A stretch of 56,111 nt of DNA from Actinomycetota bacterium. GTDB lineage: Bacteria; Actinomycetota; Actinomycetes; Mycobacteriales; Mycobacteriaceae. The notes under the pieces are model-generated. The model was not told the origin of the DNA and searched no databases. It saw only the letters and a list, made by a program, of their open reading frames with translations. Every line of letters begins with the position of its first letter. Position 1 is the stretch's first letter. A program made the position numbers and the translations under genes. Location of the stretch: positions 1-56,111 of the forward strand of contig JAUPLT010000229.1 in NCBI GenBank assembly GCA_030836785.1, in the 5' to 3' direction. This document shows, in pieces, positions 14,733-19,503 of this stretch.

Positions 14733-16805
14733 CTAGGTTCGGATCTGCCACCCGACCGACGGATCCAGCGCCAGGCTGAGGACGTCGACCGCCTCGAAGG
14801 CACTCATCGGGATGGTGCTGAGTTCCTGCTGAGCAGTCAGGTGATCGGTCCCGGTCCAGCCGTTGCCCATGGCCAACAGCCCGGCTCCGTCTCGTCCCTC
14901 CCCGAACGAGTCGTAGATCACCGCGCCGTGCTGCTGTAGCGCACGCAGGACCACCTGGGTGGCCGGATCGTAGGTTGAGATGTCGAAGTCGGCGCGCAAC
15001 CGGAATACCGTGCCCATCGGGACACCGTCCGGGTTGGTGCCGGTGCCGTCGCCGGCCAGGGCCGGCCAGCTGTGCCCGGTTCCGCGGTCCTTGGCGATGA
15101 CGATGCCCAGCATGTGGTCGATCTCGCCCCGTTCGAGGTCGTCAGGGCGAAGCATCAGCGGCAGATAGGGCAGTTTCGCCGCGTTGGCCGCACCGATCGT
15201 CGGGTAGAACGGCGAACTCATGTCGTAGTGCACGCCGGCTTCGGCGATCCAGGCCGATCCCCACAATGCGGCGTACGCGGCGTTACCCAACGCGTCGAGA
15301 ACGCCGGCGGCCGGCAGTTCCACTCCGTTGGCGACGTTGATCAACTCCTGGGAGATGCAGGTTCCGGTCTGGAACACCAGCAGGTGCCGATCCCAGGCCG
15401 GAACATCGGGCATGCCCTCAACGAGCGGGTAGTCCGGGATGGCGTAGGGGCGGTCGTCGATATTGGGTCCGGTGGTCGAATATCCGCGGTTGAAGATGAC
15501 TGTCTCGGTGGGGTGGTCGGGGCCGACGATGTTGACCGGCATTGTGGCGGAACTTCCCATCCACGGCGTGGTCTGCCATCGGGCTATCAGGGTGCCGCCG
15601 ATCAGATCGGTCCACGTCTGCGACTCCGCAAGGACCGGCAGGGGACTGACGTCGGCGTGGAAGACGGTGTCCGCGGGCATCAGTGTGCAGCCGCAGAACG
15701 TCGACAGATCGCGCACCGGAGCGCCCGCAACGAAGGTGACCATCACCGGTACCAGGACGCTGCCGCCGTAGCCATCCTCGATCGTCACGGTGAACTGATC
15801 TTGCCGGTCGGCCGCCGTCGCGCCGGGGGCAGAGGCGGCGGCGAGGGCTTCCGCACCGGGGGAGTAGGTGAATTCACCCGAGTCGGTCACCGCGACAGCA
15901 CCCTTGGCCGGTGCCGTTGAGGCCAGATAGGTCAGCGGGTCGCCGTTGGGATCCGAGCCGAGAATCCTGCCGGTGAGCACGCCGGTGACCGGATCGGGCG
16001 GGTCGAGGCGAAGTGTCGCAGACGGTGCGTTGTTGAACGGCGCGACGCTCACGCGGACTGTTGTGGTGGCGGTGTGCCCGGCAGTGCCCACCAGGCCGAA
16101 GGTGAGCAGGTTCAGCAATCCCTCGAGCCCGTGGAGGTGGAAGCCGCCACCGGCGTCGCTGGCGGTCACCTCGAAGGAGTCGACGGAATCACTGCGCGCC
16201 AGCATCGGATCGGCGGTGTACGTGTACTGCCCGGACGGGCTGAGCGTCACAGTGCCGTGGGCCGGGGCGCGGGTCACGGCAAGTCCGATGGGGTCGCCGT
16301 CGTGGTCGGTGGCGTCCACTGACCCGCTGACGATCCCGCCGGGTGATTGCCCGGTCTGGATCCCAACGGGTCGCGGAGCGGAGTTGCCCAGCAGTGCTGT
16401 CAGCGGATCGGACCGGGTGACCGCAGCAAGCGGCGGTGTACCCGGGGAGGCCTTCGTCTGAGCCGCGGCAGGGCGCTGGGAGTCCGCAACCCGCTGGACG
16501 GCCGCCGGGGCCGGCTTCGACCCCCGTTGCCGTGGCGGTGCTGCCGTGTGCCGTGCGCCTGAGCCGACGCCCGGGAACGTTTTCGCCTGGCGCGCAGTCG
16601 CCGTGGCCCGGGAACGTTGGTCGGCGGAGCGGACCGCATCGGCTGAGCCGTCGTCAGCCGGATCTGCCGCAGCCACCCCGGTACCGGCAAGAAGCACCGT
16701 CGCCGCTCCGGTGGCGGCCGAAAGGACAGCCCAGCCGACCCCCGCCGCGATCGTCGTGCCGCTGATTCGCCGCCCTGTGAACATCCCCGGCCCCTTTGCT
16801 CGCAC
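14733..16805 (-). CDS. Secreted VCBS/Ig-like repeat protein with uncharacterised C-terminal domain
   Basis: Signal peptide; VSGSVDATDHDGDPIGLAVTRAPAHGTVTLSPSGQYTYTAD and GVLTGRILGSDPNGDPLTYLASTAPAKGAVAVTDSGEFTYSP tandem VCBS/cadherin-like modules; LLNLLTFGLVGTAGHTATTTVRVSV mycobacterial motif. Confidence 0.8.
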   Translation of the reverse strand: MRAKGPGMFTGRRISGTTIAAGVGWAVLSAATGAATVLLAGTGVAAADPADDGSADAVRSADQRSRATATARQAKTFPGVGSGARHTAAPPRQRGSKPAPAAVQRVADSQRPAAAQTKASPGTPPLAAVTRSDPLTALLGNSAPRPVGIQTGQSPGGIVSGSVDATDHDGDPIGLAVTRAPAHGTVTLSPSGQYTYTADPMLARSDSVDSFEVTASDAGGGFHLHGLEGLLNLLTFGLVGTAGHTATTTVRVSVAPFNNAPSATLRLDPPDPVTGVLTGRILGSDPNGDPLTYLASTAPAKGAVAVTDSGEFTYSPGAEALAAASAPGATAADRQDQFTVTIEDGYGGSVLVPVMVTFVAGAPVRDLSTFCGCTLMPADTVFHADVSPLPVLAESQTWTDLIGGTLIARWQTTPWMGSSATMPVNIVGPDHPTETVIFNRGYSTTGPNIDDRPYAIPDYPLVEGMPDVPAWDRHLLVFQTGTCISQELINVANGVELPAAGVLDALGNAAYAALWGSAWIAEAGVHYDMSSPFYPTIGAANAAKLPYLPLMLRPDDLERGEIDHMLGIVIAKDRGTGHSWPALAGDGTGTNPDGVPMGTVFRLRADFDISTYDPATQVVLRALQQHGAVIYDSFGEGRDGAGLLAMGNGWTGTDHLTAQQELSTIPMSAFEAVDVLSLALDPSVGWQIRT

Positions 16806-16956: not shown

Positions 16957-17193
16957 CTACTCGGCGGCGTCTTCTTTGCCGGCGTCTTCTTTGTCGCTCG
17001 TGAACACTTCCTTGGCCTTGTCGACGGCATGGGTAGCGATGGCGGTGGCGTCCTCGACGATGGCGCCGACACCGCCGGCGATGTCGCCCTTCAGGATGTG
17101 ACCGGCGTCCTCGACGATGTCGGCGGCCTTCTCGACGGCATGCGTCGCAATGTCCTTGGCGGCGTCGACGGCGGTCTTCGGATCGAGATTCAT
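16957..17193 (-). CDS. Small Ala-rich amphipathic helical protein with internal duplication
   Basis: 78 aa; DIATHAVEKAADIVED and AIATHAVDKAKEVFTSD repeat the same helix; RBS-like aaggag upstream of ATG. Confidence 0.6.
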   Translation of the reverse strand: MNLDPKTAVDAAKDIATHAVEKAADIVEDAGHILKGDIAGGVGAIVEDATAIATHAVDKAKEVFTSDKEDAGKEDAAE

Positions 17194-17284: not shown

Positions 17285-17731
17285 CTAGACATGCACGTCA
17301 CGGAGTCCGACCGCGTTGCGCAGTCCGCTGCAGTTGTAACAGCCAACACACCCGACGCAGTCCGTGCACCTCGCGCAGGCCACGCAGCCAACGCACCGAT
17401 TACAGGCGAAGCACGCGACACACGCAGCGCATCTGCGCATGAACAGCGACAGCGCGGTGACCGCACTGGTCGAGATGCCAGCACTCCCTAACGTCACGAC
17501 CGACCCGGCTACCGCAGCACTGCCGGCGGTGGCGATGGAGCCGGCAACCGCCGCGCTGGCCGCGGTCGCGATAGAGCCGGCAACCGCCGCGCTCGCCGCG
17601 GTCGCGATAGAGCCGGCAACCGCCGCGCTCGCCGCAGTAGCGATGGAGCCGGCAACCGCCGCGCTCCCACGGGTAGCAACCGACCGGGAAACCGACCCCG
17701 ACCCGGTCGCCAGGCGCTTGTCCCGGCTCAC
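17285..17731 (-). CDS. Bipartite repeat protein: SAAVAGSIATAA dodecapeptide repeats plus perfect (C-X-X)12 cysteine ladder
   Basis: Translation ...SAAVAGSIATAA x5-6 ...MRRCAACVACFACNRCVGCVACARCTDCVGCVGCYNCSGLRNAVGLRDVHV; 12 Cys, each exactly three residues apart. Confidence 0.65.
   Translation of the reverse strand: MSRDKRLATGSGSVSRSVATRGSAAVAGSIATAASAAVAGSIATAASAAVAGSIATAASAAVAGSIATAGSAAVAGSVVTLGSAGISTSAVTALSLFMRRCAACVACFACNRCVGCVACARCTDCVGCVGCYNCSGLRNAVGLRDVHV
17486..17675. repeat. 36-bp tandem repeat within the coding sequence
   Basis: gagccggcaaccgccgcgct cores at 17538, 17574, 17610 and 17646, exact 36-bp period. Confidence 0.9.
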
Positions 17732-17818: not shown

Positions 17819-18049
17819 TCAGCGTAGGGCCTGGCGGTGCTCCGCCGGGTAGGCATGGACAATCGCGCTGGCCAGCTTGGGCACTGCATGGGTCAGGATC
17901 TGCTCCGCCTCGTGCGCGGCCGACCCGTCGTCGTCGGCGGCGTCGAACACCCGGGTCGTCACATCAACGAGAAGCTGCTCGAACGGGCCGGGCTCCCAAA
18001 GTCTTGCCGACCCCACCCGGGAACCGGGGTTCGCCGGTGACTGGAGCAC
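17819..18049 (-). pseudogene. Remnant of a duplicated CDF transporter C-terminus
   Basis: AHEAEQILTHAVPKLASAIVHAYPAEHR matches AHEAEHTLTHAVPKLTSALVHAYPGKHR at the end of the adjacent CDF gene; no transporter body present. Confidence 0.75.
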
Positions 18050-18061
18050 CCACCCAGTATT

Positions 18062-19099
18062 TCAGGCTCCGACACTGCGGTGTTTTCCTGGGTAGGCATG
18101 GACGAGCGCGCTGGTGAGTTTGGGCACGGCGTGGGTGAGTGTGTGTTCGGCTTCGTGCGCGATCCGGTGAGCATCGGTGATGCTGGTCGCCGGGTCGATA
18201 TCAAGTTCTGCCTCGGCATGGAGACGGTGGCCGATCCAGCGCATCCTGACGCTCCGCACGCCGGTGACTCCCGGTTCGGCGGCCAGTGCGGCTTCGGCAG
18301 CATCAACCAGTTGGGGGTCTACTCCGTCCATCAGACGGCGGAAGATGTCGCGAGCAACGGTACGCAAGATCGCGAGGATGGCTACGGTGATCAGCAGCCC
18401 GACAATCGGGTCGGCCAGGGGAAAGCCAAGAGCAACCCCGGCAGCCCCGGCGACGACCGCCAGCGAGGTGAGTCCGTCGGTGCGGGCATGCAATCCGTCG
18501 GCGATCAGGGCTGCCGAGCCGATGCGCCGGCCAACCCGGATGCGGTAGATCGCGACAAGTTCGTTGCCCACAAAGCCAACAAAACCGGCGGCGGCGACCC
18601 AGCCGACATAACCGACCTGTGCCGGATCGGCGAGTCGCCGGAAGGACTCCGCACCGGCGACGACGGCGGACAGGGCGATCATCGCCACCACGAAGAGTCC
18701 GGCTATATCCTCGGCTCGTCCGAACCCGTAGGTGTACCGACGGGTGGCGGGCTTGGTGCTGATTGCGAACGCGATCCACAGTGGCACAGCGGTGAGGGCA
18801 TCGGCCACGTTGTGGATGGAGTCGGCCAGCAGGGCCACCGACCCGGAAATCGCGACGATCACGAACTGGGCGAGCGCGGTCACCCCGAGTGCCAGCAGGC
18901 TTATCTTTACCGCCCGGATTCCGGCAGCGCTGGACTGCAGGGCATCGTCGATGCTGTCAGCCGCGTCGTGGCTGTGCGGGAGGAATACCTCGCGGAGCGC
19001 GGCGAGTGGGCCATGGTCGCCATGGTCGTGGTCATGGTCATGGTGGTGATGCGCATGGTTCTCGGGGCCTCGGGGTGCAATCCGGGATTCGTGAGTCAT
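18062..19099 (-). CDS. Cation diffusion facilitator (CDF) metal exporter with His-rich N-terminus
   Basis: HAHHHHDHDHDHGDHG; TM helices with DSIHNVADA and DGLHARTDG metal-site motifs (HxxxD/DxxxD type); cytoplasmic C-terminal domain. Confidence 0.93.
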   Translation of the reverse strand: MTHESRIAPRGPENHAHHHHDHDHDHGDHGPLAALREVFLPHSHDAADSIDDALQSSAAGIRAVKISLLALGVTALAQFVIVAISGSVALLADSIHNVADALTAVPLWIAFAISTKPATRRYTYGFGRAEDIAGLFVVAMIALSAVVAGAESFRRLADPAQVGYVGWVAAAGFVGFVGNELVAIYRIRVGRRIGSAALIADGLHARTDGLTSLAVVAGAAGVALGFPLADPIVGLLITVAILAILRTVARDIFRRLMDGVDPQLVDAAEAALAAEPGVTGVRSVRMRWIGHRLHAEAELDIDPATSITDAHRIAHEAEHTLTHAVPKLTSALVHAYPGKHRSVGA

Positions 19100-19503
19100 G
19101 CGCTGCGCCCGTCCTTGCGCTTCCGTTCGTGCAGGACGGCGAGTTCGCCGGTGTCGCGATGGTGCCCGGGTATGCCCGGCCCGGCATGCTCGGCGTTGAA
19201 CACCGCATCGGAGACGAGTTGCCGGATGTGGTCGTTGTCCACGCTGTAGTAGATGGTGGTGCCGTCGCGGCGGGTGTGCACCAGTCGTGCCATGCGTAAC
19301 TTGGCCAGGTGCTGCGACACGCTGGGCGCAGGTTTTCCGACATGAGCCGCAAGGTCGCCAACGGACAACTCACGGGCAACGAGTGCCCACAGAATCTGAA
19401 CCCGTGTGGCGTCGGCCAGCATCCGGAAGACCTCAACCACCAGATCGACCTGGTCGTCGGGGAGCCGCCGAGTGCAAGCTCCACTATCTGCATTCATATG
19501 CAC
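19096..19503 (-). CDS. kmtR: ArsR/SmtB family metalloregulator, KmtR (Rv0827c)-like
   Basis: PDDQVDLVVEVFRMLADATRVQILWALVARELSVGDLAAHVGKPAPSVSQHLAKLRMARLVHTRRDGTTIYYSVDNDHIRQLVSDAVFNAEHAGPGIPGHHR resembles remembered KmtR; 4-nt overlap with the CDF gene. Confidence 0.82.
   Translation of the reverse strand: MHMNADSGACTRRLPDDQVDLVVEVFRMLADATRVQILWALVARELSVGDLAAHVGKPAPSVSQHLAKLRMARLVHTRRDGTTIYYSVDNDHIRQLVSDAVFNAEHAGPGIPGHHRDTGELAVLHERKRKDGRSA
19489..19502. promoter_or_regulatory. Candidate ArsR/KmtR operator palindrome overlapping the regulator start
   Basis: TGCATTCATATGCA, arms TGCAT/ATGCA. Confidence 0.4.

What the first reader, a model, noticed from the sequence alone, without database searches (positions are those of the whole stretch)
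17285..17731. Perfect (Cys-X-X)12 ladder fused to dodecapeptide repeats
On the minus strand, 12 cysteines occur at every third residue (17330-17431: CAACVACFACNRCVGCVACARCTDCVGCVGCYNC). This would place all thiols on one face of a 3-fold (polyproline-II or 3-10-like) helix. The preceding SAAVAGSIATAA repeats come from a 36-bp tandem DNA repeat. I recall similar CVxC-rich small ORFs in other actinobacteria but no assigned function. The neighbouring CDF exporter and KmtR-like regulator suggest a metallothionein-like metal sink; a RiPP precursor is the alternative.
Basis: partly seen in the sequence, partly recalled or inferred. Interest (0 to 1): 0.8.

Follow-up and report, generated by a model that had tools for sequence, protein, structure and literature searches.

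The report
Mycobacterial beta-solenoid with all-cysteine core
The window holds a real, conserved, unnamed mycobacterial protein that is predicted to coil like a beetle antifreeze protein, with twelve cysteines lining the inside of its last three turns; its job is unknown, and the nearby metal-transport genes look like a coincidence.

Summary
ORF 17285-17731 (-) has 12 Cys at exact three-residue spacing after 12-residue repeats. It is not chance: 167 relatives were found (Mycobacterium sensu lato, Pseudonocardia, Actinomycetospora, Williamsia), with homologues in two sampled genomes outside the class; Cys register, ladder length and tail (C-S-G-L-R-x3-G-x-R) are conserved. Pfam, NCBIfam and the PDB do not know it; only an uncharacterised phage family (phrog_15341) shares the ladder.

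The interpretation needs changing. Repeats and ladder share one three-residue register (Ser-Val-Ser-Thr, then Cys), and the ladder keeps a 12-residue period. AlphaFold gives an all-beta solenoid for two diverged members. This is the inward register of Tenebrio antifreeze protein (Cys-Ser-Cys-Ala core). So the thiols probably line the core of the last three turns, not one face of a polyproline-II or 3-10 helix.

Linkage to metal genes fails: no CDF gene in the fetched flanks of 80 relatives, nor upstream in the closest one. A YcaO-type RiPP is disfavoured: 18 of 23 carrier genomes lack YcaO. Odd Cys totals are as common as even, against an all-disulfide core. My best guess is a reduced thiol core binding soft metal or acting in redox; that step is inference.

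The parts
17285..17731 (-). Gene for a 148-aa solenoid protein, GTG start, no obvious signal peptide (by eye; no predictor was run)
   Evidence: homologues
17486..17665 (-). Five 12-residue repeats (residues 23-82, consensus SAAVAGSIATAG); Ser/Val/Ser/Thr lie in the Cys register
   Evidence: (36-bp array 17505-17666)
17432..17485 (-). Degenerate coil(s) joining repeats to ladder (residues 83-100, SAGISTSAVTALSLFMRR), same register; in relatives Ser here is sometimes Cys, giving ladders of 13-14 Cys
17330..17431 (-). Cys ladder, 12 Cys at i, i+3 (residues 101-134), predicted inward core of three 12-residue coils
17288..17329 (-). Conserved C-terminal tail SGLRNAVGLRDVHV (residues 135-148), low model confidence; cap or partner-binding element (inference)

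Best explanation
A protein, probably cytoplasmic, that folds from end to end as a narrow beta-solenoid with 12 residues per turn, of the kind solved for the Tenebrio molitor antifreeze protein (TmAFP). Every third residue points inward. In the N-terminal turns the inward residues are Ser, Val, Ser and Thr (a serine ladder); in the last three turns all four are Cys, so 12 thiols stack in a tube about 14 A long, followed by a conserved Arg/Gly-containing tail. I think it most likely that this thiol core is kept reduced in the cytoplasm and works as a buried thiolate site, binding soft metal ions such as Cu(I) or Zn(II) or reacting to oxidants, with the N-terminal coils as scaffold. Shown: a conserved coding gene, fixed register and length, a 12-residue period in repeats and ladder. 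Predicted: beta-solenoid fold. Inferred: inward Cys, and the cytoplasmic location (no obvious signal peptide). Guess: metal or redox function.
For: 167 relatives in public genomes, with 12-Cys ladders in 51 of 80 loci, 13-14 through in-register Ser-to-Cys changes in 20, and fewer in the rest, where single Cys are replaced or one whole triplet is deleted. Repeat positions in the Cys register are S 82%, T 78%, S 79%, V 64%. Triplet similarity within the ladder peaks at a lag of four triplets = 12 residues, 0.355 against 0.21 for permuted triplets, 0 of 200 permutations reach it; one phage ladder (L126) peaks at the same lag, four other phage ladders do not. AlphaFold gives all-beta solenoids for the window protein (mean pLDDT 73, about 80 in most of the repeats and ladder) and for a Pseudonocardia member (72), with a bridge at every third residue in the ladder. 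[quoted passage not shown] TmAFP 1EZG is the best PDB sequence match of a phage ladder (E 0.0017), and 1L1I/1EZG appear, weakly, in the Foldseek list. Odd Cys totals are about as common as even (20 against 23), which argues for thiols that are not obligatorily paired.
Against: Model confidence is moderate (pTM 0.53 and 0.49); no PDB fold match is significant, and the TmAFP fold hits are poor (E 1.8-4.4, TM about 0.3 by target length); coil length and handedness could not be read from coordinates. The match of the phage ladder to TmAFP may be mostly Cys composition. Nothing here tests metal binding or redox, and no conserved gene context points to either.
Confidence: 0.45

Rival explanations
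1. Same solenoid, but Cys is only a good small core filler (like Ala, Ser or Val in other narrow solenoids); the function lies in the uncharged flat surface or in the conserved tail.
For: Cys and Ser exchange in register; the 72 residues before the ladder are 89% G/A/V/I/S/T and 3% charged, suited to packing or self-assembly; the tail is among the best conserved parts.
Against: In a 31-member non-redundant set 359 of 372 ladder positions are Cys, and columns 4 and 6-12 are Cys in all 81 members examined, stricter than a mere filler should need.
Confidence: 0.25
2. Disulfide-zipped solenoid as in TmAFP, formed in an oxidising place or under oxidative stress.
For: TmAFP pairs C2 with C8 across each coil (PMC8038014), and the register is the same.
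Against: No signal peptide seen (by eye); four inward Cys per coil rather than two; odd Cys totals as common as even.
Confidence: 0.17
3. Metallothionein-like detoxification sink tied to the CDF exporter and ArsR regulator.
For: Neighbours 18062-19099 (CDF, TIGR01297) and 19096-19503 (ArsR/SmtB, NF033788); Cys-rich.
Against: No CDF hit in the fetched flanks (up to 10 kb per side) of 80 relatives; synteny with the closest relative ends before CDF; no metallothionein model hit; a long ordered scaffold instead of a short peptide.
Confidence: 0.08
4. RiPP precursor, e.g. azole-type as heterocycloanthracin, which also has a Cys-Xaa-Xaa ladder.
For: Same ladder pattern, and that precursor too is encoded far from its enzymes (PMC2674419).
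Against: No TIGR03601 hit in the window protein; YcaO lacking in 18 of 23 carrier genomes of the genus; the ladder and tail are conserved and the N-terminus is variable, the reverse of leader and core.
Confidence: 0.04
5. Cysteine-sensing attenuator ORF, as proposed for polycysteine short ORFs of mycobacteria (from memory), where translation matters and not the product.
For: Many Cys codons; often close upstream of co-directional genes.
Against: Protein-level purifying selection over ladder plus tail, conserved non-Cys residues; downstream genes differ between clades; 148 aa.
Confidence: 0.01

Closest known systems
Tenebrio molitor antifreeze protein (TmAFP, PDB 1EZG/1L1I)
   Same: 12-residue tandem repeat; every third residue in one register (inward in TmAFP); Cys and a Ser ladder in that register; beta-solenoid
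   Different: Two inward Cys per coil, disulfide-bonded, secreted, with Thr ranks that bind ice; here four register Cys per coil in the last three coils, no outward Thr array, no signal peptide seen; no significant sequence match of the window protein
phrog_15341 (phage proteins of unknown function; L126-L128)
   Same: Cys at every third residue over long stretches; the window ladder matches at E 4.6e-6; 12-residue period in L126
   Different: No Ser/Val/Ser/Thr repeat part and no full mycobacterial tail; mostly longer ladders, rich in Asp/Lys
Heterocycloanthracin precursors (TIGR03601)
   Same: Cys-Xaa-Xaa ladder of about 13 Cys in a small protein; Cys-Xaa-Xaa as the unit of insertion and deletion (PMC2674419)
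   Different: Leader peptide plus cyclodehydratase, dehydrogenase and scaffold genes in the same genome; cyclodehydratase lacking here, no model hit
Metallothioneins (e.g. mycobacterial MymT)
   Same: Cys-rich, possibly metal-binding
   Different: Short, low-order peptides (general knowledge); no model hit; no metal-gene linkage

Membership tests
TmAFP-type 12-residue beta-solenoid (fold class) | 12-residue coil repeat | tested here: met
   36-bp array; lag-12 peak in the ladder
TmAFP-type 12-residue beta-solenoid (fold class) | Every third residue inward and small (Cys/Ser/Ala) | tested here: inconclusive
   Register shown by sequence; side-chain direction not read from coordinates
TmAFP-type 12-residue beta-solenoid (fold class) | Significant fold match to 1EZG/1L1I | tested here: not met
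   E 1.8-4.4, TM 0.27-0.30 by target; absent from the rows shown
Insect antifreeze proteins (TCTxSxNCxxAx family) | Outward Thr ranks, signal peptide, TCTxSxNCxxAx consensus | tested here: not met
   Off-register positions are Ala/Gly/Ile/Val; no signal peptide seen by eye; Cys pattern differs
phrog_15341 | HMM match over the protein | tested here: inconclusive
   E 4.6e-6 over the ladder only (residues 101-137); Cys composition may drive it
Heterocycloanthracin/TOMM precursor | TIGR03601 match | tested here: not met
   no hit at E<=1; no hit, but its control rang nowhere
Heterocycloanthracin/TOMM precursor | YcaO-type cyclodehydratase in the genome | tested here: not met
   absent from G000 (93% complete) and from 18 of 23 carriers of the genus
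Bacterial metallothionein | Profile match | tested here: not met
Bacterial metallothionein | Stoichiometric metal-thiolate binding | not testable with these tools
   Needs purified protein

The most novel reading that the evidence does not exclude
A beta-solenoid whose closing turns have four inward Cys each and enclose a one-dimensional thiolate-metal wire or cluster (or a reversible thiol/disulfide stack): a metal or redox site built by a solenoid core, shared by actinobacteria and phages.
Probability: 0.2. Interest if true: 0.85.

Novelty: new variant of a known kind. Interest (0 to 1): 0.55.

Why it matters
It defines an unnamed, conserved family in environmental and opportunistic mycobacteria, and proposes where Cys-Xaa-Xaa ladders put their thiols: inside a 12-residue solenoid rather than on a helix face. 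If right, phage and actinobacterial ladders become one structural class with a testable question: is the all-Cys core filled with metal, with disulfides or with nothing? A single purified protein would answer it.

Tried and rejected
Metal-gene linkage (none). YcaO RiPP. DNA-repeat artefact (rejected by dN/dS and Cys codon variation). A conserved operon partner: none over the family, clade-specific neighbours only: succinate dehydrogenase genes plus an acyl-CoA dehydrogenase-like gene in the M. vanbaalenii/austroafricanum group, an SDR on either side in another group, RNase Z in an M. kansasii-like group (persicum, attenuatum, innocens). Plasmid and phage record searches found nothing, but their low-complexity filter makes this weak. 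Foldseek gave no significant match. A literature search for the ladder sequence found nothing relevant. Radical-SAM and other RiPP maturases were not searched. My first two neighbourhood scripts failed to place the gene and were replaced.

Full report
WHAT IS THERE. The ORF and ladder are as described. The gene is in a Mycobacterium sensu lato genome: contigs of same-genus handles coincide in length and position with named records (G009 with Mycolicibacterium litorale F4, CP019882; G036 with M. austroafricanum, HG964450). A paralogue lies on contig C195.

HOW WIDESPREAD. 23 of 37 genomes of the genus have a homologue; the one hit outside it (G052) is a low-complexity VGC run. A scan of genome contigs gave 167 relatives, 80 kept: Mycobacterium/Mycolicibacterium, Pseudonocardia, Actinomycetospora, Williamsia and MAGs. 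In class-wide and phylum-wide samples it is rare: 12 of 395 and 11 of 397 genomes; three of the 11 are weak hits to the repeat part without a ladder. Two of the 11, G499 and G764, lie outside the class and keep repeats plus ladder (E 3e-28 and 5e-31); G764 also keeps the start of the tail (GLRGAVG), G499 has another tail.

ANATOMY. Ladder counts are 12 (51 loci), 14 (13), 13 (7), fewer in the rest. Extra Cys replace register residues of the coil before; missing Cys are single replacements or one exact triplet deletion (Actinomycetospora, P. bannensis). Invariant over 77 sequences are, among others, C110, all Cys from C116 to C131, G130, GLR 136-138 and G142. The register analysis shows that repeats and ladder are one continuous three-residue pattern with a 12-residue period. 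In TmAFP the same spacing marks the inward residues.

STRUCTURE. Two AlphaFold runs, on the window protein and on a Pseudonocardia member, agree on an all-beta solenoid, with short strands every six residues in the repeats and one bridged residue in three in the ladder. Confidence is moderate, the tail is poor, and the two runs use overlapping alignments, so they are not independent. Foldseek returns mainly beta-helices at its top, none significant.

FUNCTION. Context gives little: each clade has its own neighbours. The CDF-ArsR pair looks peculiar to this genome: the closest relative (L071) aligns from downstream up to about 17697 and then has a different gene, and no CDF gene occurs in the fetched flanks of 80 loci (many loci are shorter than 10 kb per side). 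YcaO is absent from most carriers; within the genus the five genomes that have it are all carriers (5 of 23 against 0 of 14), too few to mean much, and not corrected for relatedness. Odd Cys totals (20 of 43) argue against full disulfide pairing. A buried thiolate core is what I rate most likely, with a passive core as the main rival.

SECURITY OF STEPS. Shown: gene, family, register, period, selection, lack of linkage. Predicted: fold. Inferred: inward thiols, cytoplasmic location. Guess: metal or redox role.

Noticed in passing
window 17834-17918 against 18077-18161: The 3' end of the CDF gene is partly duplicated (85 bp, 78% identical) between CDF and the solenoid gene, a CDF remnant that suggests rearrangement here.
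   Followed up: partly
L126, L127, L128 (viral contigs): Phage Cys-Xaa-Xaa ladder proteins (phrog_15341), with more than one ladder ORF in a row in L127 and L128, of unknown function.
   Followed up: partly
L062 (CAMCWJ010000270): A MAG labelled Bifidobacterium breve carries this gene beside crt-type and polyprenyl synthetase genes as in Mycolicibacterium; probably a misbinned contig.
   Followed up: no
L036 and L037: One assembly (uncultured Mycobacterium UC10) holds the same neighbourhood on two contigs, perhaps a duplicated assembly.
   Followed up: no
L038, L105, L087 and others: An SDR gene lies directly downstream of the solenoid gene in 13 loci and directly upstream in 4; orthology of these SDRs was not tested.
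   Followed up: partly
L129:1-1782 (G000 contig C195): Near the paralogue lies a gene with TIR and nSTAND1 domains, a possible defence gene.
   Followed up: no
window 16957-17193 and 14733-16805: Rv1893-like gene (PF23706) and a Big_9-domain protein gene downstream; both kept in the closest relative L071.
   Followed up: partly
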